Notes under the pieces: generated by a model | Told to the model about the DNA's origin: nothing | The model's database searches: none | What the model saw: the letters and a program-made list of their open reading frames with translations, nothing else | In this document: positions 2,090 to 64,000 of the stretch, in pieces | Numbering within the stretch: the stretch's first letter is position 1 | Layout: each line of letters opens with the position of its first letter | Source: Diplolepis rosae | Taxonomy: Eukaryota; Arthropoda; Insecta; Hymenoptera; Diplolepididae | Reading direction: 5' to 3' | Length of the DNA: 64,000 nt | Assembly: GCA_030998225.1 (NCBI GenBank) | Contig: JAPYXD010000460.1 | Location: 186,001 to 250,000 of the forward strand | Made by a program: the position numbers and the translations under genes

Positions 2090-2760
2090 GCACTGGAGTC
2101 TCATGGGATTTAAGTAGTGCATATTTTTTCGGACTTTCTTCCCTTAATCGTAATGTTCCTAACAGTGAGCAAGCAAGAGTTTATCTTAGTGCTTCATGAG
2201 CCGTTCGCCACCTTCGATTTCCAGAATGATATTATCATTTTCTGTAAAACTGGCGACGGCATAAGGCCCTGTGGCTTGACTGTCGAATTTTCCGTCCCAA
2301 ACTTCATTAAAGACGTAAACCGGATTTCCAATTTTCGCGTTTAGTTATCGAGTTTTCTTGTCGTACTGCTTTTTTGAGCCAGATTTCGCCTTGATGAGGT
2401 TCTTGTGGGAAATTTTCTGGATTTTAGTTATTCTTACTATCAGGTCGCGTAAGTAAGATCCATACGTTTCGAATTCATGTACTGACGTGTTACATGCGAA
2501 CATGGCGAAAGAATGCAATCGATCCCAATCATCATATTCATAAGCATAATGCTTTATGTAATCCGTTAATACAATATGGCTTCTTTCGAGAGATCCGTTA
2601 GTTTGTAGTCGGTATCCGGAAGCAGTTAGTTGCTGCACGTTAAATAGTCTTTCTAGGTGTTTCATTAATTTGCTTATAAAACCCCCTCCCTTGTCTGTTA
2701 GGATGTATCTAGGCGCACCATATTGGGAGCGAATCTCCTGAATTTGTATGGTACCTTAAT
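2090..2760 (-). pseudogene. Ty3/gypsy-type integrase fragment
   Basis: Read on the minus strand, the core shows the second catalytic Asp in YILTDKGGGF and the catalytic Glu in QTNGSLERSH. These are followed by the LTDYIKHY and CNTSVHE blocks typical of gypsy integrases. A C-terminal stretch with WDGKFD, TGPYAV and a LMKH/DKLLLAH-like end carries on to about 2090, with one in-frame stop near 2342. The first catalytic Asp and the HHCC zinc domain are missing. Compared with consensus, TD-Q-G has become TD-K-G. It is not part of the element at 34.7-40.2 kb, whose integrase has different sequence. Confidence 0.75.
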
Positions 2761-8390: not shown

Positions 8391-8702
8391 CTTTTTTTAA
8401 TTATGTGTTCTGGGTGTAAGGAAATAAGTTAGATTTTCCTTCATAAATTTAAGTTCTACGTAGCACTCATCTCCATGTTGAATAATAAACTCAACTGATA
8501 TGCACTTTATTACGTGGACCACATCTCCTGCTGTCCTTGCCATATACCCACGTCATTTTATCAAATTATAGGCGAAATCGTCGGAAGCCTGTGTAACTAT
8601 AGCTAGCGCGTTCTACAGTGTTTCTTTCTCTATTTTACATCGTTGCAGTAGAATATCTCTATACAAATTCCGCATCTGTGTTTTGATATGTTTTTCCACA
8701 TA

Positions 8703-9909
8703 ACACGTGGATCAATAAGTCCCGGGAATAACTAGGAAAAACACATTTTTTTGGCAAAACTCGACTTTGCTCATCAACATAGTCTCCTTCAAGAGCAACA
8801 CAATCAGTCCAGCGCTTCTCTAACATTTCAATACCTTTCTTGTAGAACGATTTATCTTTGACCTTACAATAAGCGTTCGTATCAGTGATGACTTGCTCGT
8901 TGGAGTAGAATCTCTTTCCTTGGAGCATTTTTTTGAGGTCTGCAAACAGTTAGTAGTCGCTGGGGTCAGATCCGGTGAATATGGTGGGTGCGGAAGCAAT
9001 TCGAAGCTCAATTGTTCAATTTCACCATGGTAGCGAGCGACTTGTGACACGGCACATTGTCTTGGAAAAGAGCACTTTTTTCTTCTTCATTCATAGCCGT
9101 TTCTCACTGATTTCGTTCTTCAAATGCATCAATTGGCCAATGTAACGTTCGCTATTGATCGTATTACCTTTTTCAAGGTAGTCGATGAACAAAATTCCAT
9201 GAGCATCCCAAAATACTGAGGTCATAACCTTACCGGCACACATTTGCGTTTTTGGCCGCTTTAGACGCTTCTCACCGACTGCAGCCCACTCGGCTGACGA
9301 CCGCTTTGACTCCGGAGTGTAGTGAAGGATCCAGGTTTCGTCCGTTGTCACATACCGATGCAAAAAATTCGGTTTATTTCGGCGAAACAACTCCAAACAG
9401 CGCTCGGAATCAACGACACGTTGTCGTTTTTGATCCACCGTGAGCAAACGCGGTACCCACTTTGAAAACAGCTTCCTCATAGACAAATGTCTATGTTCGG
9501 TGGACTTTTTCTATGGTTTCCGGTGTAACTACCTCATTTGGCCAGCCGGAGTGTTCAGCATCTTCAGTGTCTGTACGACCACGTTTAAACTCAGCATATA
9601 ACCGACCAATGGTTATTTTTGATGGAGCAGAGTCCCCGTAGCACTTTGCAAGCCATTGCTGAGCTTGCGCTGTGTTTTTTTTCATCAAAAAGAAATAGTA
9701 AATCAACACACAAAGTTGTTTCGAATCCATTGTTTTAAGAATATCAAGACTAGCGTCACTTAAATCACTGTAACTCGTGGAACAAACATCAGAATGTCAT
9801 GAAATTCTGACAGGTATCTTTTGAAGGTTGGTACACATGAAAAATCATACAAAACTTTTGTTGGCAACGCCATCTATGTGTCAGTCCCGGGACTTATTGA
9901 TCCACGTGT
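8703..9909 (-). mobile_element. Mariner with perfect 25-bp terminal inverted repeats
   Basis: The left end 8703-8727 is a perfect inverted copy of 9885-9909. Both start ACACGTGGATCAATAAGTCC and end CGGGA. TA flanks both sides (8701-8702 and 9910-9911), the target duplication of Tc1/mariner insertion. Length 1207 bp is usual for mariner. Perfect ends with a decayed gene suggest either recent movement by a transposase supplied elsewhere or slow decay at the ends. Confidence 0.95.
8755..9730 (-). pseudogene. Mariner transposase, degraded
   Basis: The N-terminus (9491-9730) begins MDSKQLCVLIYYFFL with a mariner helix-turn-helix (WLAKCYGDSAPSKITIGRLY). The central part (9091-9486) holds the first catalytic Asp in VTTDETWILHYTPESKRSSAEW. 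The second Asp is in a QDNVPCHKS block near 9040. The third lies in a shifted frame, in an SDY-stop-LFADLKKML arrangement near 8960. The C-terminus (8659-8928) has FYKKGIEMLEKRW. The ORF has no stop before the inverted repeat, so the listed frame runs through the terminal repeat itself. At least three frame breaks and one nonsense codon replacing Trp. TDETW and PESK suggest a subfamily other than mauritiana. Confidence 0.88.
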
Positions 9910-9911
9910 TA

Positions 9912-10730
9912 TATAAACTTAGAATTGACATAAGCGAATAAATCAACGTTGTCTACAGCTAGTTTGGAACTACCTGCAAATGATTCTCCTTTGACAGTCT
10001 AAAAAATAACCAATTCAGGATGTTTGGCACGAAAAACAGTATATCCGCAAACGCTTTCTGCAGATTTAATGTTTAAGGAAAAGGTTATATTAAGTCGTTG
10101 ATTTTATTCGCGTAGCCCTTATATAAAATGCTATATTTGTAAAATTTACAGTTGTTCATCGTGTAGGAATTGGTATTGGTCGGACGATAGAGCGTACGAC
10201 ACTGGATTTAGGCTGTGAAATGAAATTTAGATCTTTATTGAATACAAGGAAATAAAAACTATATTAACCTCGCTCGCAGACGTGTTGCCTCGAGGAAAAC
10301 CCGGCAGCGGACTGTCTCTCGCTGCCCCCTCTACCGCGGCGCGTATGGCAGCGGGCAGGAGCGTAACCAAAATTTTAGACGCTGTTTTACAATCGGAATG
10401 GGATTCCAAAATGTATGCCATCTTCTACTTCCATGCGTGTTGCACCTGATAAGGCACAAGGTGTACTGGAGCGCAAATGTATCAGACTATTGCTTAAATC
10501 TGCTTTAGCCTTCTATTCTTGCAGGGTTATTTTCAATGTTCTTCGAACTAATACAGACTCCCAATCCCCATAGGGATCAGAATACGAAGCTCCGTTACAC
10601 CTACCTTCGTAGGGGGGTAGCATGGGGGGTGTTGTGATACTATTTATCTTAATACCACTTATAATTTGATTGCCAAACTAAAGTATACTGGTAATATAAA
10701 GTTGCTTACAGGCTTGTTTGCTTATCTCGT
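9912..10730. other. Gene-free stretch with a GC-rich patch at about 10270-10390
   Basis: No supported gene. A 64-codon minus-strand frame covers the GC-rich patch (CTCGCTGCCCCCTCTACCGC region) but shows no motif. The base composition of the patch differs from its surroundings, so it may be an old insertion. Confidence 0.4.
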
Positions 10731-10732
10731 AT

Positions 10733-11690
10733 ATACAGGGTGAGGCTCATAAAGTGTTACAGAGGGATAGCACTCAAACTATTGATCATATCCAAAAATG
10801 TTTTCTGTAATCGGATTCGTAGAAAAATGCGCACAGATGTCTCATTTTTGAGTCATGTGCTTTTTTCTGATGAAGCTAACTTCGCAAATACGGGAAATGT
10901 GAATGGGAATAATATGCATTATTGGGCAAATGAGAATCCTCGATGGATGCGAACTGTGCCATTTCAACATCCATAGCCCGTTAACTGTTCGTGCGGCATT
11001 GTTGGCGATTACGTCAATGGTCCATATTTTTTTGAAGGTCGCTTGACTGGGCAAGTTTACGCAAACTTTCTGCAAAACGTACTGCCTTAATTAATGGAAG
11101 ATGTGCCCTTGCATGTTAGCTTGAACATGTAAATGCAACACGATGGTGCAGCACCCCATTATGCTCTGTGTTCAAGACAAGTGGTGAATGAGATTTTTGA
11201 CGAAAAGTGGATAGGTCGAAGCGGCCCTGTAGCTTGGCCACCTCGTTTGACAGATCTAACATCACCAGCTTACTTTTTATATGGTTTTGTCAAAAAACGC
11301 GTAATGGCGGTAGCACCTACCACGCCTGACGACATGAAAGAAAGAATACGCTGAGTATGTACCGAAATTACACCACAAATGTTGGCTGAAGTTAGACGTT
11401 CTTTTCATCAGCGAATTAATAAGTGCTTACAAGTCGAGGGTCATCACTTCGAGCATCTTCTGCAGGTAGATCCAAACCAAGGTTAGTGGATCCTTTGAAA
11501 GTGATTATTCCGATATGTTTCGATTTTTCGACTATTTTCATACTTTGCGTGACTAGAATGACCTTGTGTCGTAGGTCACGAAATTCGTCTTAATATCGGT
11601 AATAATGTCATCGAAAAAAAGTACATGGTTTTATTTGAAAAAGTGAAGTTGACCTAGACGTAGCTTCAGCGCCCCCACCGATAAAAAAAT
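10733..11690 (+). mobile_element. Tc1-like (IS630-type) transposon remnant
   Basis: The left end is TATACAGGGTGAGG; ACAGGGTG is the usual outer sequence of one group of insect Tc1-like elements. The right end is not clear, but the 3' flank after the ORF (about 11530-11600, TACTTTGCGTGACTAGAATG and following) is shared with 52240-52310, the end of a deletion derivative. Confidence 0.65.
10740..11480 (+). pseudogene. Tc1-like transposase, third catalytic Asp lost
   Basis: Order of blocks: LSHVLFSDEANF (first Asp), WANENPRWMR, CGIVGDYVNGPYFFEGRLTG, YANFLQNVLP, MQHDGAAPHYA (second Asp), WIGRSGPVAWPPRLTDLT, YFLYGFVKKRV and TPDDMKERIR. This is the insect group in which the third block normally reads LT-x2-DFFLWG. 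Here the position is SPAYFLYG, so the catalytic Asp has become Ala. Stops interrupt it after FQHP, NVLP, SLNM and ERIR. The N-terminal DNA-binding part is missing. Both the Ala change and the stops make it inactive. Confidence 0.82.
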
Positions 11691-36373: not shown

Positions 36374-39080
36374 TTATATATTGGATATTTTCTCTCGGGT
36401 TTTGGATATTATCTTTTCGTGCTTCTTCTTCCATTTCCTTATCAGATCCTGATAAGTTAGATTAGGGGTTCTTCCGAGTGTTAATTCATAGGGAGAGTGT
36501 CCACTCGTTTGATTGGTAGTAGTTTTGATGACGAAATTGGTGTATTTCAAGTTTTCGTCCCATTGTTCATTATTTTCGGCAATACTAGTCTTAATCAGGT
36601 TTACTAGTGTAGAGTGCATTCTTTCGATGTTCCCGTTTGATTGTGTGTGGAATGCAGTTGTTTTAATATGCTGAATGTTCAATGCGTTTTCAAATAGCGT
36701 CATTAATTCTGATAAGAAGTATGATCCTTGGTCAGAAAGTATAGTCTTAGGTGCTCTGAAAGTATAAATATAGTGATTGATTAAGGCTTCTATTATTGAA
36801 TTCGTTGATTGATTCTGCAAGGGTACAAGAACTGTATATCTTGTTAGTCTATCGTGCATACTGAGTATGTAGCGATTTCCTTTTTGTGTTTCAGGGAGTA
36901 GCCCAAAGATTTAGCACCCAAAGAAATTTTTCGTTGGGTGCTAAAGGTATATCAGGTAATATGCTCTTGGCTTGATCCTTCATACGCGTTGTTTTCTGTA
37001 GTTGGCAAATGGGGCAAGACTGCACGTATTTTTTCATTTCGTTGTCCATTCCAAGCCAGAAGCCGATGGTCCTAGCCTTTTCCAGAGTGTTCTTTTTTCC
37101 AAGATGAGTGGAGTGTGTTTCTTTGATTATAGCTTGTTTATCTTCTTTTGTCAATTCTCTGGTAGGCGTGATACATAAGTAGAAATTAAGGTGTGGGTAA
37201 TAATTTGAGAGGAATTCAATCATTTCCTGAAGTACTTCCTTTTGCAGTGGGGTAAATAATGGATCTCCAAAAATAAGCCTTATAATGGTTACTTTTTTGT
37301 TTTTAATTTCGTCCATGATCACGCTTAATTTTATGAGTCAACCTTCTTCATCATAGTCGGGCATTTCCTCCTTTTTTATGTCCTTCCATAACTTTTCTAT
37401 CGCGTTAGGTTTTGTCTTAACTTTGCCAAAGGTAGGTTGCAGTCTCCAATTTATAAATTCCGTATGCATGTCAAGTTTCTCGGGTGTCATGTCTTCCGTA
37501 GATTCGTTCTCTGTTTCCTCCGAAGGTTCTCTCATCCGTCTTAGTGGTAAATTTATATTTTCCTGTCCTTTTAGTACCCTATCTTCTGTTATAACTGGGG
37601 TACCGAAAATTTCGATTTTGTGTGGTTGAGTTTTTAATTCCGCAGTTCCATCCTCCTCATCGGATATTCCTGCTTCCCACATTGCTTGTTTTGAAATATC
37701 AGATGTTATAGGGAAAAGTCGGGATAAGCAGTCTGCAACTTTGTTTTCTTTTCCTTTTACGTATTCAACGTCGTAATCGTATTCCTCCATTCTCAATATG
37801 GAGCCAGACCAAAGCTCTGTGGTCCGTTTGGATTTTGAATTGGTTACCAAGGAGATAGTGTCCCAAGCGCTTCATATCCCATACTATAGCTAAAAGCTCT
37901 TTTTCTGAGGTACTGTATCTTTTTTCAGCTTTGTTGAGAGTCCTTGAGATAAATAAGCAGGGGTGTCCATTTTGACTAAGAACTGCTCCTAAGCCTTGAT
38001 TTGAGGCGTCAGTTGTTAAGGTGAATTGTTCTTTGAAATTCGGAAACCTTAACACTGATGCTGATATTAATGCATTTTTCAAGTCATAGAATGCTTTTTC
38101 GCAGTTTAATGTCCAGTCGAATATTGTATCTTTTTGAGTTAGCTTAATGAGTGGTCTTGCAATGCTTGAAAAGTTTTTAATAAATTTTCTATAGTATCCT
38201 GCGAGTCCTAAGAAGGATTGTACGTCCTTTACTGTTTTTAATTGTTTAATGTTCTGTACTGCACTTAATTTCTCTGGGTTGGGTATTATTCTATCCTTAG
38301 TAATTACATGTTCTAAAAATTCTAATTCTGGTTTAAGGTATTCGCATTCGCTGGGTTCTAGACGTAGTCCTAGGGGTTTTATTTTTTGCAAAACTGCTTC
38401 TAAATTTTCGTCATGTTTTTGAATAGTTTCGCCAAAAATACCGTGTCATCTATATAGGCAAAGCATCTCGTGCCTATCAATGCTCTAAATGCATTGTCCA
38501 TCAACAGTTGGAATGTAGCTGGAGCATTCTTTAATCTGAGTCATTTTGTTGTATTCAAAATGTCCCTGGGATGTAGAAAAGGCTGTACACTTCTTGTAGC
38601 TCTCCTTCTTGGGATTTGATGGGATCCTGCTAAAAGATCAAAAGCTGAAAAGAATTTTGCTCTACCAAGCTGATTCGTCTATTATGATCTAAGCTACCCA
38701 TCTATTACAGGTAACGGATATGCATCTTGATCCGTATCTTCTTTGATTTTTCGGTAATCGATGACCATTCGTAATTTATTACCCTTTTTAGATACTATCC
38801 ACAGTGGGGAGTTAAGCAGTGATTAGGATTCTCTTATAATTCCTTTTCGTAAAAGTTTCTCCGTTTCCTGGAGTCAATATTCTCGGTGTTTTCCGGCAGT
38901 CAGGTACAATATGAAAAATATGTGTTTTTCCAAAAAAAGTGAAATTAACTGTTTCTGTAGAGATGTGTTCGTCTCTACCCATAATAAAAATTTTAATGTA
39001 TTTTTGCCCTTTATCATTAATGGCAATCACTTTTTCCTTAATTAAATTTAATTCTGCTCTTGAGTCGCCCAGTAGTCTTT
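36374..39080 (-). pseudogene. Gypsy Pol: protease, RT, RNase H, integrase, in several frames
   Basis: Protease (about 38812-39080): the active site reads DSRA instead of D-S/T-G-A. RT (about 38400-38810): LWIVSKKGNKLRMVIDYRKI, DAYPLPVID and the catalytic AYIDD box (38445-38456). RT thumb and RNase H (37765-38391): FLGLAGYYRKFIKNF, FTLTTDASNQGLGAVLSQ, IQTDHRALVWL. Integrase zinc domain (36891-37322): H-x3-H at THSTHLGKK and CPICQLQK. Integrase core (36374-36859): the Asp of MHDRLTRY, the Asp of LSDQGSYF and the Glu of NGNIERMHSTL, all three present. Six or more frame breaks. The 84 bp between 38392 and 38475 contain the RT active site in a shifted frame. Confidence 0.88.
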
Positions 39081-41024: not shown

Positions 41025-41320
41025 TGTCACAACCCGTGACGTATTACAATGTATTATAGGCACAGGCTAAGTCTAGAGAAAAATCTGGGGAAATTAATAA
41101 AAGAGACAGAAAACCACCTATTAAAAAGAGAGGTATAGTTACACAGCGGGAGACTGCGCAATGCGTGACGTCACCAAAAAATATAATATAAAAAGGACAC
41201 GCCGCCAAGGGTAAAACTAGTCTTGTGAGCAGAATTTAAGTGCGGCATTTTCTAAAAACTAAAAAGGATTCCCAGCGTGAGATAATTGTACCGTGCAGTT
41301 TGACAGTGTGAAGACCCGAG
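41025..41320 (+). repeat. Partial gypsy LTR, copy 1
   Basis: Starts TGTCACAACCCGTGACGTAT and matches, in inverted orientation, the LTR at 59750-60043 over nearly 300 bp. Landmarks are GGTATAGTTAC, GCGGGAGACTGCGCAATGCG, TGACGTCA, the TATA box and AAAAAGGATTC. Matching ends at ...GACAGTGTGAA, just before the 5'-truncated mariner. Confidence 0.8.
41187..41196 (+). promoter_or_regulatory. LTR TATA box
   Basis: TATAAAAAGG with a CRE-like TGACGTCA about 20 bp upstream. The same arrangement is conserved in the other LTR copy (59865-59874, minus), which supports a pol II promoter. Confidence 0.65.
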
Positions 41321-42533: not shown

Positions 42534-42594
42534 TAAATTTACCGTGGTCCGTTTTCAAATCCTTGAAAGGATTTTAGAGTCAGTGTCTAAGTGA

Positions 42595-42749
42595 GATAAT
42601 ATTGTTGTCTTCCTCACACCAACAGGATAATATTGCTGTCTACCTCGGACAAAGAGGATAATATTGCAGTCTTCCTCACACCATTAGGATAATATTGCTG
42701 TCTTCCTCACACCAATTGGATTATATTGCTGTCTTCCTCACACCTGTGC
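42595..42749. repeat. 31-bp minisatellite, five units
   Basis: Units begin GATAATATTGCTGTCTTCCT at 42595, 42626, 42657, 42688 and 42719, an exact 31-bp spacing. It lies about 300 bp upstream of the primer-binding site and so probably within the 5' LTR of the next element. Confidence 0.95.
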
Positions 42750-43040
42750 GGATTAATTAAAAGGGAACCATTCGACTAAGTCAACAACAAGTACCGTACT
42801 TCTCTCTCTATCTTTCGTCTTTTTCCAACCAACCAGTCTGTGCCTCCCATTACATACCAATTGTATCGACATTGTTATAACTTCAAATTATAATTATTTT
42901 AATAAATTTAAATTGTATTATTTGATAATCAATTTGTCTTTTCAATGACTTATCCTCATCCCTGATCCTAACTTAAAACGAGGAATCTTCGATCAAAGTA
43001 AGTATTTACATACTTGTGACGTAACATACTTCCATTTTTC

Positions 43041-43059: not shown

Positions 43060-44070
43060 ACACAAGTCAATTGAAATTTAACACATTGATTGTTAATAGT
43101 AAATAAATAAATGATTATGAAATATTATTTCAACTTGAAAACGTAAAATTTCAATAAAATAGATTTGTTAGATCACAAAGGGATTTGACCTTGAGGCTAA
43201 CCTTAATGATTTGATAATCAAATCATTTCTTTGAAATTTTATAATTTACATAAATTGTATAAAATAAAATAAGTCTAAAAAATCACGCAGGGATCTGACC
43301 TTGAGGCTAACCTAAGTGATTAAGTAACTCATCTTATTTGAAAAATTATTCTAATTTGTTAACTAAGTTTTGACTTAAGTTAAAACAAACATAAAAAACA
43401 GCACACGAGAGTATAAGTCCTCTTTGGGTACGTTGAACGGTCACCATTGATTACGATCATTGGGTAAGGCGAAGTTCGAAGTGCTTGTGATTATATTGTT
43501 TATAATTTTAATTTCAACTCTGTTAAGGAACAGAATATTTTTAATTGCAAAAAAAATTTTTTTGTCCAAAGATTTGCACGCAAGTTAACTTGTCCAATAT
43601 AATGAAAAAAATTTATGAATATTTCGAATGATGATTGTTGTAAACTAATTCGTTTAATTGTTACAAACGATTAATAAATAAATAAAATAAATTATTGTAA
43701 TTTACATAAAAGGCACATGCAGTTGGTAAAGAAAAATATTTTATTATTTTAAGAAATTTATTATTAAAAATTAAAAATTAAAAATCAATTAAGCGATTAT
43801 TTATTTAATTTAAATATTTGAATTAATTATATCCTTATATCGTTATTTTATTCCCAAATGAAGAAATACAAATTTCATTTCAAATTATATTGTTATTAAC
43901 AATAAATAAACAAATTAAAAATAATTTTAATAATCTCATTTTATTTTTCTTCAAAAAAAAAATTTTATATATAGTTTTTTTTATTGTTATAAAGAATCGA
44001 ATAATTTAAAGTAACAATAAACAATCTAAGACAACGCTCAATACAAAATATTGTAAATTTATAACGACTC
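43060..44070. other. Untranslated leader, very AT-rich
   Basis: No ORF. A GGGATCTGACCTTGAGGCTAACCTAAGTGATT-like phrase occurs twice (about 43180-43215 and 43288-43322), a direct duplication with 105-bp spacing. Confidence 0.5.
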
Positions 44071-44570
44071 AATGTCAATACCAAATATCCCTCTAGAATC
44101 TACTCCGTAAGTTATAACACGTAGTCAAGCTAAACAAGATAGTCAGCTTGCAAAAATAGTAGATTTGAATCAAAAGGGTAGTTTAAAAATAAAACCAATG
44201 AGAAGTAGAAAATATTTAACTGACAATAAGTGCCAAAATATCCCTGATCCAATTCCTACAGAACAAGAATTAGATAACACTCTTAAGTTAGATGATTCAA
44301 GTTTAGACTTATAATAATATATTATTATAATAATCAAATTATATCAAGTGAAAATTCAGAAAAAACTAGCGACTTTCATTCAAGTTTCTGTCCAGATTTA
44401 AGCATTGTAACAGCTCAACAGTAATAACAATAGATAATAAAACTTTGAAAGAAAAATTGGAAACCTCATTGGCACGTGAATCTATAATTGGTAACAACGA
44501 CAGCGTCGACGACAAAAGCGACACAGAAGTCATAAATTAAGATAATCCAGTAATAGTAAATAACGAAGAA

Positions 44571-45473
44571 ATGGCCGTAGTCATATCCGATAACCATCAG
44601 GTATCCTTACGCGACGCGCTATAGGTGGTCCCAATTTTTAACGGAAGCAACCTCCCATTGTCACATTTTATTGAGGATTGCATGGAGGCAAAGACAATGC
44701 TACCGACACCTGCAGCTCAAGAAAACCTCGCAAGGTTATTAAGAGGTAAATTAACTGGAGAAGCTAGAAAATGCATTTCTGGTTCAACTTATGCAACAAT
44801 AAAGGAATTGATAGAAAAATTGAAAAGAGTATATGCCCCAGCAAAAAACGTGTACCAGTTACAGGGAGAAATAGGTAACAAATTTATGTCGCAAAGAGAA
44901 AATGTCCTTTCATATGCCGCCAGAATTAAAGAAATTGCTGACAGAATAGAAGATGCTCACAGACTCAATAATGGCGGTCAGGTAGATAATGCTTTAAAAC
45001 AAAATTTAGAAAGAGATGTAATACAATGTTTTATACGCGGCTTGCGTCCCAAGTTAGAAATTCGTGTAGAAGAAAAGGATACTTTTAGGGAAGTCATCAA
45101 CGACAGTATTGATATAGAACGAAGATTAGCTGCAAATGCCGCACTACGAAAGAATAAAAATATGGAATATTTAAAAAGTGACGAACAAACAAATAATAAA
45201 AATAATAAGGTTACTCGGTTTAATGTTGCACGCCAAGATAAATTTATTTGTTTCATTTCTAAAAAGCCAGGTAATGCAAGTGAAAAATATTTTCATTTAA
45301 GTAAAGCTCAGAATGCAGTTCTTAATAATAAACAAAAAAATTTTTTGCATCCTAACCAACAAGGATATTGTTGCTCTCCCCAGCACGGGTGCACCGTGGA
45401 AAGCATAAATCGAAAACCACTGGCATCCACTTCTAACGATAAAAAATTGCAAGTCCTCTCAATCAACTTCTAA
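44571..45473 (+). pseudogene. Gypsy-type Gag with premature stop
   Basis: The frame starts at ATG 44571 (MAVVISDNHQVSLRDAL), meets TAG at 44622, then stays open to 45473. The core has FNGSNLPLSHFIEDC, LLRGKLTGEARKCI, YAPAKNVYQLQGEIGNKFMS, NVLSYAARIKEIADRI and CFIRGLRPKLEIRV. This is the retrotransposon-gag capsid fold of gypsy elements, which builds the particle. No intact zinc knuckle follows. A further N-terminal stretch (from ATG 44072, MSIPNIPLESTP then a stop) lies upstream in another frame. After ISKKPGNASE the sequence drifts, marking the edge of the pol deletion. Confidence 0.82.
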
Positions 45474-46229: not shown

Positions 46230-47900
46230 GGTAAGAATATTTCAAAATTCTTTCCAGATATCGAAGTTAAAAGTAAACAAAACTTCATTTCATGGCGTTA
46301 CTTTAGCAGGTTCTGTAACACCTAAGGGAGACTGTACTGGTACACAATTTTCTGACCCATATGGAACATGGAATAATGTCGTAGTCCAAGCAATATTCAA
46401 AATAACATTACAAGAACATTACGCGACTATTCATTTAAATTCAAATAAAATTCAATCAGGATCTGAAATAATATGCACACTTTCAGACACATTCTGTACA
46501 GACGTTTAATATGGACAAACATTCTAGGAGACATTACCTAATGACGTATGTAATTTTAACAAATATGAAATTATTTATGAAGGACCAGCAAATAAAACAT
46601 ATGAAAGCACGGCAGACAATTCTGAAATCTTTTATTCTTTAACGACTGAAGATATAACCTTCGTACTGGCTGAAAAAACAAGAAAACCAGTTTGCAGTTA
46701 CGTTTTAATACAAACTGAACATCCAAAATTATTAATTTTTGAAATCAGACTTGGAAATTCATTTTTAAAAAATAAACATTTAGAAGTTCAAAATATGGCC
46801 ATTTTTACATACGTTAACTCTAAATTTATATATGTGGAACGACACATACGCACTGAAGTAAATAGACGTTATTCCGATGTTCTTACTCAACGATGCATAA
46901 TTCAACAGCAAGTTTTTAGAAATACATTAACCTTAGCAACCCAATCACTAGACGAATTTGCATATCATTTAATGAAAGGTCCAGGATATATGTCAATAAT
47001 TGCAGGGGAAGTAGTACATATCGTAAAATGTATACCGATTGGAGTAAAATATCGCAAGACTCAAGAATGTTATCTACATCTACCAATATTTAGAGGAAAT
47101 CAATCCTTTTTCCTTTCTCCACGAACTCATATATTAACGAAATCCGGTATCCAAACAAATTTAATTCTTTCCTTCCACCAATGTACCTTTTTGGAGAAAC
47201 CTGGTACAAATTACTTCCAAATCCTGTCGAATCCATAGCACAAACTATAGTTAAACCTCTCACAAAAGCAACCTGGAAATACACAAATCCTTCATCCTTA
47301 GCAACAAGTGGCATTTATTCTCAATCTGATCTTGATAAACTGTGAGATCATATTATGTTTTCAGCAGAAAAACCAATGATTCTAAATTCTTTAGCTAGAG
47401 AAATAACAGGGCATCCAACTATTAATCAAGGAATATCATTAACGAATTTATTTAACGAAGATGTAATTGATAAAATTGCTGAATCCGCATGGGGTAGATT
47501 TTGGACAATTTTTACAAGTTTTGGAACTACTAGTACAGGCCTAATTGGATTAATTATAATAATCAGAGGGATTAAAATGATAGCGGATACCATTATTCAT
47601 GGATATGCACTACACAGATTATTTGGATGGTCTCTCCATCTACTAGGCGCCTTCTGGGATTCGGTCACTAATCTCTTATTACACTTAGGTACCCATCGAC
47701 CTTCCCGACCTCATGCTGAGAGCCATCAACTTCTTCTAACAGCTTCAGCGCCACGAAGCTCGAAAGAGGCACCTAAAAGTTCATCGTATAACGCAAATAA
47801 CACTTCAGGTAAAGATCACAATAATACAAACACAACTCTTTATCCTCACTCTCAACTAAAAGAAGAACTTAGTAGAACACACTATTCTATCCAAATCTAA
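46230..47900 (+). pseudogene. Chuvirus-like (Jingchuvirales-type) glycoprotein captured by the retroelement
   Basis: The first part (to about 47238, one frame with stops at 46507 and near 46525) has GDCTGTQFSDPYGTW, VNRRYSDVLTQRC and ECYLHLPIF. After a shift near 47200, and with one further stop at 47342, the second part (47355-47900) has SLAREITGHP, DKIAESAWGRFW, a membrane segment around STGLIGLIIIIRGIK, and DTIIHGYALHRLFGW and LGAFWDSVTNLLLHLG. These blocks recall the glycoproteins of chuviruses, which arthropod LTR elements are known to have acquired. It would mediate membrane fusion; this copy has at least four breaks. The tail after LHLG is Ser/Asn-rich and not conserved. An errantiviral F-type env is excluded because there is no furin-plus-fusion-peptide layout. 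Confidence 0.62.
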
Positions 47901-49043
47901 CATATTTAGATTGTCGCATGTTCCTTTTACTAATTTATTGAACAAACTCATTCAACAAAGAGGAGATCCACCCCTCAATTACGAAATACTCATTGAACAA
48001 ACCATTAATAACAAGTATTTATTTCAGGTAAATTTACAATATAAAAATGACATATATATGAGTAGTGGTAAAGATAAAGATAATGTAAAACAAAGGGTAG
48101 CACGGAATTTATATCAAACCTTAATCAATGAATCGGAAAAAACCTATTAAAATGACCAACCAAATTTTATTAGTAAAAATTGCAAGAAATTAAACGAAAT
48201 TTGCACTCAAAACAAATGTTCATAACCAAAATGTATGGCATTACGAGTAAAAACTTCATCAGAAGATTCAGCATACATAGCAATTTGTTACTTTAATAAC
48301 ATTGAACAAATAGGAATAGCAAACTGGATAGAAACAGCTAAGGATTTTGCTGCCATAAAAGTTATTAATTCTCTTTCGCATAAAGACGAGAAATGTGAAC
48401 TAAGTTTGATAAACTCACTAGAACATTTGCATGTCACAATTCAAGAGTCATCTACAAACGATCCAAAACCTTCAACGATTAGCCGAATAACAAAACCTAT
48501 TATTTTAAATAACAACCGTATTAAAAATACAAATTCATATAAAATGAAGAAACATAATAATCAACTACATCATCTTTCTATACGAAAAGCTTTAAAAAAT
48601 GTTTTAAATGCGGATATAGACCTCCCAACCAGTACAATAAATTCTAATATAAAATTTCCATACCAATTCAGGAAATCAACTGCAATGGAGCATTACTACG
48701 ACGAGCTTACCCATGTACCAAGTTACCAAAAACAAGAATACAAAACAGAATTCATGGGATTTTTAAATCATGTAGAAATTTTAAGGAATTTCACTATAAA
48801 ATATGGATTGCCGTTACCGCAATATAAGGTCTACCCTCACCCAAATTCAAAAACAAAGTCATTTTTTTCGCACAAATTAATATAAATGAACATTTTGTTA
48901 TACAAACCGGCCCTACCAGCGAATTACCAGAAAACAGAACAGCTTTAAAATTACTATTACTACTAATAAGATCATACTGTGGCGTCCTGGTTACTCACCC
49001 CTTATTATTATATTTAATTTGTTTTCCTCGTTTAGAACGGTAA
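47860..49043 (+). pseudogene. ORF with three tandem dsRNA-binding domains
   Basis: One frame runs from 47860 (overlapping the glycoprotein end) to 48885, with stops at 48148 and 48223, and shifts near 48868 to continue to 49043. dsRBD 1: NLLNKLIQQRGDPPLNYEIL, YLFQVNLQYKND, RVARNLYQTL. dsRBD 2: KKLNEICTQNK, IAICYFNNIEQIGIAN, AKDFAAIKVINSL. dsRBD 3: FLNHVEILRNFTIKYGLPLP, QYKVYPHP, then in the shifted frame FVIQTGPTSEL and ALKLLLLLI. Each has the alpha-beta-beta-beta-alpha order of the family. None keeps a clean KKxAK motif at the second helix. Three dsRBDs in one protein recalls Loquacious/R2D2-type RNAi cofactors. No ATG fits the first domain; a start by splicing or frameshift is possible. Confidence 0.62.

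Positions 49044-49166: not shown

Positions 49167-49193
<27 letters not shown>
49167..49193. repeat. (GA)n microsatellite
   Basis: Thirteen to fourteen GA units. Confidence 0.95.
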
Positions 49194-49198
<5 letters not shown>

Positions 49199-49337
49199 AA
49201 CGGCGGTAGTTTCTGGTGTTTTCCAATTGACTTTAAAATATATGAGGCTTCGGAGAAACGATATTCTATGCTTATCTCGTTTAAAAAAAAAATTTTTTGA
49301 GAAAAAAGACAAATTTGCAAAAATGTAGTTCAATACA

Positions 49338-49599: not shown

Positions 49600-49960
49600 T
49601 AAAAAGTTTTCGTGACGGCAAAACTTTTATTCTCGTTGCAATTGACCAGTGATCCGTGTTGGGGGCTGCCAGCTCCCACCTTCTGGAATCACTGGAATAG
49701 GTGCCACGCCGATGGTAGTCTTAATCATCGATTCAAGCGAATATGGGTCGAAAATCGTTACAAATGACTGTTAAAAAGCGTAAGAAAAGAATTAAGGAGT
49801 GGCAACGCCAATATCGTGAAAAGAATAAGACTCGTATCTACAGAATCTCAATATTTTGTCCGGTATAAACATCGATAGTCAGAAAGAAATGGAATTCGAA
49901 TGCATTAGGTACCCAAAACACCCTAACGAAAAGAAGGGTAATCGATAATTTCGAGTATAA
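49600..49960. other. Gene-free stretch
   Basis: Nothing recognised between the MITE and the satellite. Confidence 0.4.
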
Positions 49961-50995
49961 TTCCAATGCACACCTAGTGATTTCAAACACCTAGCGCAAC
50001 ATAACCATAGTTGTCAATAGTTCGGGTGATAACTTCAAATTCACGCCTAGCGATATCGAATGCCTAGTGTTGTACAAATGAAATATAAATCAAATGTAAA
50101 TATAAATTCAAATACGCGCCTAGGGATTTCAAATGCCTAGTACAACATAAGAATAATTATCAAATATTCGGATGACAATTTCAAATTCACGACTAGCGAT
50201 ATTAAACGCCTAGCGTTGTTCAAATGAAATATAAATCAAAGGTAGATATGAATTCAAATATGCGCCTAGCGATTTAAAACGCCTGGCACAACACAAGTAT
50301 TATTTTCAATTAGTTGAATGATAAATTTAAAATCACGCCTAGCGACATCAAACGCCTAGCATTGTACAAATGAAGTATAAATCAAATGTACATATAAATT
50401 TAAATACGCGCTTAGCGATTTCAAACGCCTTTCACAATATAAGAATAATTATCAAATATTTGGATGACAATTTCAAATTGAAGCCTAGCGAGTTTAAAGG
50501 CCTAACGTTGCACAAATGAAATGTAAATCGAGTACGAAAATAAATTCAAAATACATGCCTAGTGATTTCAAACGCCTAGTACAACATAAATTTAATTTTT
50601 AATTATTCGAATGATGAATTTAAAATCACCCTAGCGATATTAAACGCCTAGCGTTGTTCAAATGAAATATAAATCAAAGGTAGATATGAATTCAAATACG
50701 CGCCTAGCGATTTAAAACGCTTAGCACAACACAAGTATTATTATCAATTAGTTGAATGATGAATTTAAATCCACGCCTAGCGATATCAAACGCCTAGCGT
50801 TGGACAAATAATATGTAGATCGAAAACGAAAATAAATTCAAATACGCGCCTAGATATTTTGAACGCCTAGCACAACATAAGAATAATTATCAAATATTCA
50901 AACGAAAAATTTTAATTCACTCTTAACGTTGCACAAATGAATTTTAATTCGAAACTAGTTGAAAATCAATCTAAAAATTAAACAAATTTTGAAGA
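49961..50995. repeat. 146-bp tandem satellite, seven units
   Basis: The landmark CGCGCCTAG (or its variant) occurs at 49972, 50118, 50264, 50410, 50557, 50702 and 50848: spacings 146, 146, 146, 147, 145, 146. Each unit has two related halves, CGCCTAGCGATTTCAAACGCCTAGCACAACATAAG and ACGCCTAGCGATATCAAACGCCTAGCGTTG. Confidence 0.93.
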
Positions 50996-59749: not shown

Positions 59750-60043
59750 TCACACTGTCAAAATTCACGGTACAATTATGTCACGCTGAGAATCCTTTTT
59801 AGTTTTTAGAAAATGCCGCATTTAAATTCTGCTCACAAGACTAGTTTTACCCTTGGTGGCGTGTCCTTTTTATATTTTATTTTTTATTGACGTCACGCAT
59901 TGCGCAGTCTCCCGCTGTGTGTAACGTAGTTATACCTCTCTTTGCAATAGGTGGTTTTCTCTCTCTTTTAGTAAATTCACCAGATTTTTCTCTTGACCTA
60001 GTCTGTGCCTATAGTACATTCTAATACGTCGCGGGACGTGACA
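59750..60043 (-). repeat. Gypsy 3' LTR, copy 2
   Basis: On the minus strand it starts TGTCACGTCCCGCGACGTAT, directly after a G-rich polypurine tract. It contains TGACGTCA, TATAAAAAGG (59865-59874) and AAAACTAGTCTTGTGAGCAG. Inverted relative to 41025-41320. Confidence 0.82.
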
Positions 60044-63290: not shown

Positions 63291-63620
63291 GAGAAAAGGA
63301 TCCATAATCCGAGAAATTATGTTAGTTCGCTAGGTTTTGATGAACGCATGTTCATTACAATTAAAATAAGAGGGCAAAAAGTTGAAGCATTATTTGACCC
63401 AGGTTCGTGTCGTACCTATTTAGGTGGGCCAGTATTAGAAAAGTTTCCGGGAATGCTAAGACAGGCTAAAAAAGGAACAAAGGCCAAAGTAGTATACCCG
63501 AATGGAAACGTAGACGAAACCGGAGGGTCTTTATTGGTGTGCATGGGAATAGAAGGTGTGAATGACGAAAGACCAGGCACAAGAATTAGAACGTTTTCTA
63601 AAGGCACGCTTGTCACCTCC
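63291..63620 (+). pseudogene. Retropepsin-like domain 2
   Basis: MFITIKIRGQKVEALFDPG, CRTYLGGPVLEKFPGML, KVVYPNGNVDETGGSLLVCM. Colinear with domain 1 (same LF-I-IK, ALFD-GSC-TYLG, KFP, YPNG, TGG/SGE). The active-site loop reads D-P-G-S. The C-terminal IFGI-type strand of domain 1 is missing because the frame passes into the RT linker. Confidence 0.7.
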
Positions 63621-64000
63621 GTCAAAATATCCACGAGCGATATCGCTGGTCGAGCATCACATCGATGTGAGAGGTCATCCCCCAATTAAGCAGCGATACC
63701 GAAACTACTCGACAAAAATAACCGAATATATGAATAAGGAATTAGACGAGTTATTAGAGGCGAATATGGTCGAGCCATCGGCAAGCGAGTGGTCCAACCC
63801 GATTGTTATGGTCACCAAGTCCGATGGGACCTACCGCATGTGTTTAGACTTCAGGAAGGTTAATGAGGTAGCGAAGAAGGATGCGTATCCATTACCTCAC
63901 ATGGACACGATCTTGTCCAAATTACGCTCAGCAAGGTACATCACGACTATAGATCTGAGTAAAGCTTTTCACCAGATCCCTCTAGCGAGGAACAGTCGTG
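63562..64000 (+). CDS. Gypsy reverse transcriptase, N-terminal part (runs off window)
   Basis: The frame is open from about 63562 (DQAQELERFLKAR) to the end. Motifs: ISLVEHHIDVRGHPPIKQRY, LDELLEANMVEPSASEWSNP, TYRMCLDFRKVNEV, AYPLPHMDTIL and TIDLSKAFHQIPL, the last holding the first catalytic Asp. It is one frame off from the proteases, so Gag-PR-RT could not be made as a single polyprotein from this copy without shifting. Confidence 0.9.
   Translation, partial: MTKDQAQELERFLKARLSPPSKYPRAISLVEHHIDVRGHPPIKQRYRNYSTKITEYMNKELDELLEANMVEPSASEWSNPIVMVTKSDGTYRMCLDFRKVNEVAKKDAYPLPHMDTILSKLRSARYITTIDLSKAFHQIPLARNSR

What the first reader, a model, noticed from the sequence alone, without database searches (positions are those of the whole stretch)
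47860..49043. A retroelement carrying three tandem dsRNA-binding domains
Directly after the glycoprotein of the chimeric element lies a reading frame with three dsRBD-like folds in Loquacious/R2D2-like order, on the same strand and without introns. LTR retroelements do not usually encode dsRBDs; viral dsRBD proteins often block RNA interference. The inference is a captured host RNAi cofactor or a viral suppressor of silencing. None of the three domains keeps a clean KKxAK motif, which could mean protein-protein rather than RNA binding, or simply decay.
Basis: partly seen in the sequence, partly recalled or inferred. Interest (0 to 1): 0.88.

Follow-up and report, generated by a model that had tools for sequence, protein, structure and literature searches.

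The report
Insect retrovirus-like element with dsRNA-binding accessory genes
The broken gene in the window is a dead copy of an accessory gene of a large, recently active retrovirus-like element in an animal (probably insect) genome, which also carries two unrelated envelope genes, a cell-death-type domain and a second dsRNA-binding gene.

Summary
The window copy is decayed (three frames) and only its first domain scores as a dsRBD (PF00035, E=2.8e-4, just under the cut-off), but relatives in the same genome with one open frame score three dsRBDs (E=8e-17). The dsRBD piece is no neighbour: 19 of 20 sampled copies carry CARD - chuvirus-type glycoprotein G - dsRBD1-2 - dsRBD3/CCHC - baculovirus-F-type Env in that order, and 8 of 8 3' pieces add two Cys-rich ORFs and a second dsRBD/CCHC gene with a KK-x-A-K motif. 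The element is Ty3/gypsy-like, with 762-bp LTRs (identical in one copy, 4-bp duplication). Two further lineages carry a homologous dsRBD/CCHC gene right after integrase, so the gene belongs to these elements and was duplicated in the large one; capture of a whole Loquacious-like gene is not supported. dN/dS is 0.14-0.26 (dsRBD1-2, eight diverged pairs) and 0.12-0.15 (second gene, five pairs). Best explanation: a dsRNA-binding protein shielding element RNA from Dicer-2/siRNA defence; a nucleocapsid-like role is the main rival. Function is inferred. Ten paper searches showed nothing like it.

The parts
41025..41301 (+). first part of the window copy's 5' LTR (LTR positions 1-283, 87%)
   Evidence: blastn with a 3' LTR of another copy; about 1.25 kb separates it from the second part (that the two form one LTR is inference)
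42553..43024 (+). second part of the 5' LTR, ending ..GTGACGTAACA (70%)
   Evidence: the hit runs to 43031, the LTR end is taken
44057..45371 (+). gag, 82-90% identical to gag of another copy, broken
   Evidence: tblastn
45375..45440 (+). remnant of the end of gag / start of protease; nucleocapsid and most of protease and RT are missing
   Evidence: blastn 94% to L043
45442..46248 (+). RNase H end of pol; integrase and the CARD gene are absent from this copy
   Evidence: PF17919/PF17917; 92% to L043, no CARD hit in the window
46248..47897 (+). chuvirus-type fusion glycoprotein G, decayed, N-terminal part missing
   Evidence: PF24664 E 5e-77, 1e-42, 2.5e-23, 8.5e-17 in four pieces; mostly 90-93% to other copies, one piece 67%
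47911..48144 (+). dsRBD1
   Evidence: PF00035 E=2.8e-4; 74% to dsRBD1 of L003
48160..48414 (+). dsRBD2
   Evidence: 80% to dsRBD2 of L003; no Pfam hit of its own
48730..48977 (+). dsRBD3, split over two frames; its CCHC knuckle is missing here
   Evidence: 83% and 60% to dsRBD3 of L003
49192..49302 (-). fragment of the element's second dsRBD/CCHC gene, inverted
   Evidence: tblastn 73% over 37 aa, E=6e-13
59777..60043 (-). fragment of another LTR of the same family (90%)

Best explanation
The stretch is a dead copy of an accessory gene of a complex, recently active, Ty3/gypsy-type endogenous retrovirus (shown: gene order, LTRs, purifying selection). The gene family is a dsRBD joined to a CCHC zinc knuckle. 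It sits directly after integrase in two other lineages of this genome, and in the large element it exists as a three-dsRBD unit plus a separate one-dsRBD gene (shown). Inferred mechanism: the proteins bind double-stranded or structured element RNA, the dsRBDs directly and the knuckle for single-stranded parts, and so keep it from Dicer-2 and siRNA loading in the cell. dsRBD3, which lacks the lysines, may instead contact protein. Together with a CARD-only protein that could block apoptosome assembly, the element would carry two defence-facing genes beside two envelopes.
For: Fixed position in the element: 19 of 20 sampled copies, L015-L034, taken from 150 listed CARD copies. dsRBDs in copies with one open frame: E=8.4e-17, 3.7e-10, 8.5e-17. 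Second gene D4: PF00035 1.1e-6, zf-CCHC_3 2.2e-4 (under its cut-off), QKKSAK motif, found by homology in 8 of 8 3' pieces. Homologous gene after integrase in L051, L052 and L060; D4 against E hhalign E=2e-14 over dsRBD and knuckle. Selection: dsRBD1-2 dN/dS 0.14-0.26 in the eight of ten pairs with dS above 0.1, wrong-frame control 0.58-1.80; D4 (59 codons) 0.12-0.15 in five diverged pairs. LTRs: 762 of 762 identical in one copy, GATT on both sides. A dsRBD protein of an insect DNA virus does suppress RNAi this way (IIV-6 340R, PMC4231766, abstract seen).
Against: No RNA-binding or silencing assay exists here. dsRBD1 and dsRBD3 lack the canonical lysines, so two of four domains may not bind RNA. 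The knuckle makes a packaging role equally easy to imagine. None of the 20 sampled copies has dsRBD1-3 in one frame; dsRBD1-2 and dsRBD3/CCHC mostly lie in two overlapping frames, so a three-dsRBD protein may not be the usual product. Silencing of insect ERVs is described as piRNA-based (PMC12993057, PMC13172572, passages), which a dsRNA binder would not obviously block.
Confidence: 0.5

Rival explanations
1. The dsRBD/CCHC proteins are nucleocapsid-like: they select, compact or chaperone the genomic RNA, or stabilise the primer complex, in the particle, with no role against RNAi.
For: Each copy that I read with a complete 3' end of D3, D4 or E has a CX2CX4HX4C knuckle as in Gag. D4's knuckle matches HIV-1 nucleocapsid weakly (E=0.43-0.54). 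The gene is kept in three lineages.
Against: Gag already has its own knuckle (seen in L012; zf-CCHC 20.1 bits, cut-off 20.8). A dsRBD is not a usual packaging module (general knowledge). D1 and D3 look non-RNA-binding.
Confidence: 0.3
2. The three-dsRBD unit acts by protein contact: a mimic of Loqs/R2D2/TRBP that poisons Dicer complexes through dsRBD3.
For: The window's dsRBD1 and the L003 ORF match Loquacious, R2D2 and TARBP2 best among solved structures, though weakly (E=3e-4 and 0.006-0.05). dsRBD3 has lost the lysine motif, as in protein-binding dsRBDs (general knowledge).
Against: The same search with the L050 ORF gave only E=0.26-0.89. dsRBD3/CCHC groups with element genes, not with the two host pieces tried. 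The domain tree is unresolved (supports 36-52).
Confidence: 0.13
3. The dsRBD stretch is an unrelated neighbour or a chance resemblance.
For: Only one of three window pieces scores, below the curated cut-off.
Against: 19 of 20 copies carry it in place; copies with one open frame score E down to 8e-17; dN/dS well below 1.
Confidence: 0.01
4. The dsRBD genes are passive passengers, carried but not needed.
For: Of 20 sampled copies only 14 keep dsRBD1-2 and 12 keep dsRBD3/CCHC open at full length.
Against: dN/dS 0.12-0.26 across diverged pairs; retained in at least three lineages.
Confidence: 0.06

Closest known systems
Errantiviruses / insect ERVs (gypsy, ZAM, Idefix; Metaviridae)
   Same: Ty3-type pol (RT nearest Ty3 among solved structures), LTRs with 4-bp target duplication, baculovirus-F-type Env
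   Different: In the passages seen, described with gag, pol and env (PMC12993057, PMC12992720); here CARD, a second unrelated glycoprotein, two dsRBD/CCHC genes and two Cys-rich ORFs are added
Anakin (BEL/Pao element with captured chuvirus glycoprotein, mosquitoes; PMC7642597, passages seen)
   Same: chuvirus-type fusion glycoprotein carried by an LTR element
   Different: Pol here is Ty3-type; no second Env, CARD or dsRBD gene appears in the passages seen
Jingchuvirales glycoproteins beside Gypsy fragments in Hymenoptera (PMC10084718, passages and Results section seen)
   Same: glycoprotein next to Gypsy sequence in an insect genome
   Different: That paper found no clear evidence of capture by Gypsy; here the G is inside a repeated Ty3-type element
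IIV-6 340R (PMC4231766, abstract seen)
   Same: insect-virus dsRNA-binding protein; proposed working model
   Different: a DNA virus protein, not a retroelement; no homology tested here
Loquacious / R2D2 / TARBP2
   Same: tandem dsRBDs, last one without the lysine motif (partly recalled)
   Different: element gene has a CCHC knuckle, and its dsRBD3/CCHC part groups with element genes

Membership tests
Ty3/gypsy LTR retroelement (Metaviridae) | LTR pair TG..CA with short target duplication | tested here: met
   762-bp LTRs, 762/762 identical, GATT on both sides, tested in one copy
Ty3/gypsy LTR retroelement (Metaviridae) | pol order PR-RT-RNase H-IN, Ty3-like RT | tested here: met
   RT nearest Ty3 RT 4ol8 E=5.9e-37 among solved structures; RVT_1, RNase H and Integrase_H2C2 above cut-off; protease only weak (E=0.007, under cut-off). 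Parts read on different copies
Errantivirus genus | baculovirus-F-type Env | tested here: met
   PF12259 E=1.5e-23 on a 617-aa frame
Errantivirus genus | RT falls in the gypsy/errantivirus clade | not tested
   no reference RT set was at hand
BEL/Pao (Anakin) | Pao-type pol | tested here: not met
   pol pieces hit RVT_1, RT_RNaseH, RT_RNaseH_2, Integrase_H2C2 and rve, and no Pao-specific family; no RT tree was made
dsRBD proteins (PF00035) | profile match above curated cut-off (23 bits) | tested here: met
   L003 61.9, L004 40.7, L050 61.9, D4 29.5, E 43.5, third lineage 30.2 bits; under it: window piece 21.8, dsRBD3 of L024 alone 20.5
dsRBD proteins (PF00035) | binds dsRNA | not testable with these tools
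   D4 has the KK-x-A-K motif, D1 and D3 do not
Loqs/R2D2/TARBP2 cofactors | closest relationship to host cofactor domains | tested here: inconclusive
   D3 not (E=0.11 against two host pieces); D2 ties between host L059 (2.1e-4) and element E (2.5e-4); tree unresolved
CARD (PF00619) | profile match and helical CARD fold | tested here: met
   2 of 8 members scanned exceed the cut-off, 5 weak, 1 none; AF2 pLDDT 92; Foldseek top hits caspase-9/Apaf-1 CARD, TM 0.82 but E only 0.02
Viral suppressor of RNAi | suppresses silencing in cells | not testable with these tools
   none

The most novel reading that the evidence does not exclude
A lineage of insect 'complex retroviruses' exists: Ty3-type proviruses that have collected innate-immunity antagonists (dsRBD/CCHC proteins against RNAi, a CARD-only protein against apoptosis) and two unrelated fusion glycoproteins, chuvirus-type G and baculovirus-type F, in one recently mobile genome of about 17-18 kb.
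Probability: 0.5. Interest if true: 0.93.

Novelty: new variant of a known kind. Interest (0 to 1): 0.85.

Why it matters
In the papers seen, insect endogenous retroviruses are gag-pol-env elements held down by small RNAs. An element family that carries its own dsRNA-binding genes, under purifying selection and in at least three lineages, makes it directly testable whether insect retroviruses fight back against RNAi. It also bears on an open point in print, whether Gypsy elements ever captured chuvirus glycoproteins (PMC10084718 found no clear case), and adds an element with two envelope genes of unrelated origin and an apoptosis-type domain.

Tried and rejected
Unrelated neighbour or chance: rejected. 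Capture of a whole Loqs-like gene: not supported, though the first origin of the dsRBD, and of D1 and D2, stays open. My early thought that the window gag belonged to another element (note) was wrong: it is about 83% identical to gag of other copies. AlphaFold2 on the window's second piece: mean pLDDT 33, no information. Virus contigs (IMG/VR) with CARD and D4 profiles: no relatives. Relatives in the large protein collection: 4 for the three-dsRBD ORF, 53 for CARD, 119 for D4 (there only the 7993 best candidates were scored); the only ones with a source name are two entries of one gall-wasp gene, Belonocnema kinseyi LOC117169146, 51% to CARD. Solved-structure search of the two Cys-rich ORFs: nothing. 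Window LTR pair: only 5' LTR pieces found. Paper searches; the listings, capped at 10-20 rows (112 showed 10 of 451, 126 showed 12 of 94), named no dsRBD or CARD gene in an LTR element. A PF00619 search of the own genome for host CARD genes and a D4 search of the own genome did not complete.

Full report
What the window holds. The window is G000:C235:186001-250000 of an unnamed 757.7-Mb genome in 428 contigs. The dsRBD stretch itself is broken into three frames. Its first piece matches PF00035 at E=2.8e-4, 21.8 bits against a cut-off of 23; the other two match no family. Among solved structures the first piece is nearest to Loquacious (E=3e-4).

Relatives in the same genome. A six-frame search with the second piece gave 157 matches (150 of 1479 candidates scored), many without stops. 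Three copies that I read have one open frame of 469-470 aa with a CX2CX4HX4C knuckle (pattern match in L003 and L004; read in the L050 translation). PF00035 gives E=8.4e-17 (L003), 3.7e-10 (L004) and 8.5e-17 (L050), three stretches each under lenient per-stretch limits. In a copy with two frames (L024) dsRBD1-2 scores 40.4 bits with two stretches and dsRBD3 alone 20.5 bits, under the cut-off.

Is it part of the element? Upstream of L003 lie integrase, a 93-aa ORF and the N-terminal part of G. The small ORF is a CARD: PF00619 at E=1.3e-5 and 2.6e-5 in 2 of 8 members scanned, above cut-off; 5 others weak, 1 none; the L003 neighbour itself E=0.032. AlphaFold2 gives pLDDT 92, and Foldseek ranks caspase-9 and Apaf-1 CARDs first (TM 0.82, E=0.02; no match below 0.001). 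A genome search with CARD listed 150 matches (150 of 1160 candidates scored), most without a stop. From those rows I took 20 spread down the ranking and fetched 6 kb from CARD onward. In 19 of 20 the order is CARD, G (whole or part), dsRBD1, dsRBD2, dsRBD3/CCHC, F; the twentieth has CARD and part of G only. So the dsRBD stretch is a fixed part.

State of the frames. Of these 20, 14 keep dsRBD1+2 in one open frame of 245-262 aa (one more within a longer frame), 12 keep dsRBD3/CCHC in a frame of 239-240 aa, 3 keep G at 774 aa, 6 keep F at 618-621 aa, and 2 keep both G and F at these lengths. None of the 20 has dsRBD1-3 in a single frame; in most the two frames overlap by about 98 bases, so a frame change, splicing or two separate proteins must be assumed. 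A long G frame scores PF24664 E=7e-245 and a long F frame PF12259 E=1.5e-23.

The 3' part. Beyond F, 8 of 8 pieces examined hold, by homology and not always open, two Cys-rich ORFs (136 and up to 164 aa, no known family) and a second dsRBD/CCHC gene, D4. D4 in L010 has a QKKSAK motif, PF00035 E=1.1e-6 and zf-CCHC_3 E=2.2e-4, the latter under its cut-off. An inverted fragment of D4 lies in the window at 49192-49302.

LTRs and age. The LTR is 762 bp, TGTCACGTC..GTGACGTAACA; in the C350 copy both LTRs are identical over 762 positions and flanked by GATT. That copy spans 14.2 kb but lacks most of the leader and gag; adding lengths measured on other copies suggests 17-18 kb for a complete element (my arithmetic). 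A purine-rich tract precedes the 3' LTR, and the sequence after the 5' LTR resembles a tRNA-Gly primer site (tRNA identity recalled, not tested). RT is nearest to Ty3 RT among solved structures. Gag-to-pol parts were read on other copies; protease matches only weakly (E=0.007).

The dsRBD/CCHC gene is a retroelement gene. A PF00035 search of the genome listed 149 matches: presumed host genes at the top, and a second multicopy family with 204-aa frames. In the two places read (L051, L052) it follows integrase and precedes a Baculo_F Env (PF12259 E=1.4e-12 in L052; 0.006 for the piece in L051). A third lineage at about 50% identity also has it directly after integrase (L060, one place read, its 3' side not reaching an Env). 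D4 aligns with this E gene across dsRBD and knuckle at E=2e-14, dsRBD3/CCHC with E at 1.1e-5 and with D4 at 4.6e-5; these are single comparisons of shallow alignments. Controls with presumed host dsRBD pieces: dsRBD3 0.11 and 0.11, D4 0.017. Results against a purely element origin: E against one host dsRBD 6.4e-7, and dsRBD2 ties between a host dsRBD and E (2.1e-4 and 2.5e-4). A tree of 22 domains (12 element, 10 host) is unresolved (supports 36-52 where it matters). I conclude that D3, D4 and E are one family; D1 and D2 are open.

Selection. For dsRBD1-2 (180 codons, five copies, ten pairs) dN/dS is 0.14-0.26 in the eight pairs with dS above 0.1 (upper bootstrap bounds 0.29-0.64) and 0.34 and 0.40 in the other two, whose upper bounds exceed 1; read in the wrong frame the ten pairs give 0.58-1.80. 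Over the longer ORF the ten pairs of another set give 0.28-0.52. D4 (59 codons) gives 0.12-0.15 for the five diverged pairs and the 136-aa Cys-rich ORF 0.15-0.19 for four; the second Cys-rich ORF gave no pair diverged enough. These rest on few copies.

How it works, by inference. dsRBDs with a lysine motif (D4, partly D2) should bind dsRNA; D1 and D3 probably not. A retroelement whose RNA forms dsRNA in insect cells meets Dicer-2. IIV-6 340R shows that a viral dsRNA-binding protein can block dicing and siRNA loading (PMC4231766, abstract). The knuckle makes packaging a serious rival. CARD-only proteins can block Apaf-1/Dark-type assemblies (general knowledge), so the CARD gene is a likely apoptosis antagonist, also untested.

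Known or new. In the papers seen, insect ERVs have gag, pol and env (PMC12993057, PMC12992720: passages), chuvirus G in a Pao element is known (PMC7642597: passages), and capture by Gypsy was not clearly found (PMC10084718: passages and Results). Ten paper searches brought up no dsRBD or CARD gene in an LTR element (listings capped); subscription papers and preprints were not searchable.

Noticed in passing
window 8403-10743 (-): A second, diverged chuvirus-type G (36-58% in pieces to the element's G), interrupted; a transposase-like piece lies at 9091-9510 (-) (mariner type recalled, not tested).
   Followed up: partly
window 2165-2704 (-), 36461-37178 and 38457-38888 (-), 63562-63978 (+): Integrase and RT remnants of other elements (32-41% to this element).
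   Followed up: no
window 49901-50928: Tandem array with a 146-bp period directly downstream of the dead element.
   Followed up: no
L052 (C154:3971500-3973500): In this place integrase and the dsRBD/CCHC gene lie in one open frame (listed as 1798 aa), a natural fusion of pol and the accessory gene.
   Followed up: partly
L010:1128-1538 and 1615-1938: Two Cys-rich ORFs with relatives in 8 of 8 3' pieces, no known family; by eye their Cys spacing suggests they are paralogues of each other.
   Followed up: partly
P0051, P0052: Belonocnema kinseyi LOC117169146 is an annotated gene with a relative of the element's CARD (51%); either an element copy or a co-opted gene.
   Followed up: no
L042/L047 (C350 copy): Identical LTRs and target duplication although most of gag is missing: a recently moved defective copy, presumably helped in trans.
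   Followed up: partly
L003:1165-1195: A TTCAG just before the ATG of dsRBD1-2 and after the G stop looks like a splice acceptor; no RNA data.
   Followed up: no
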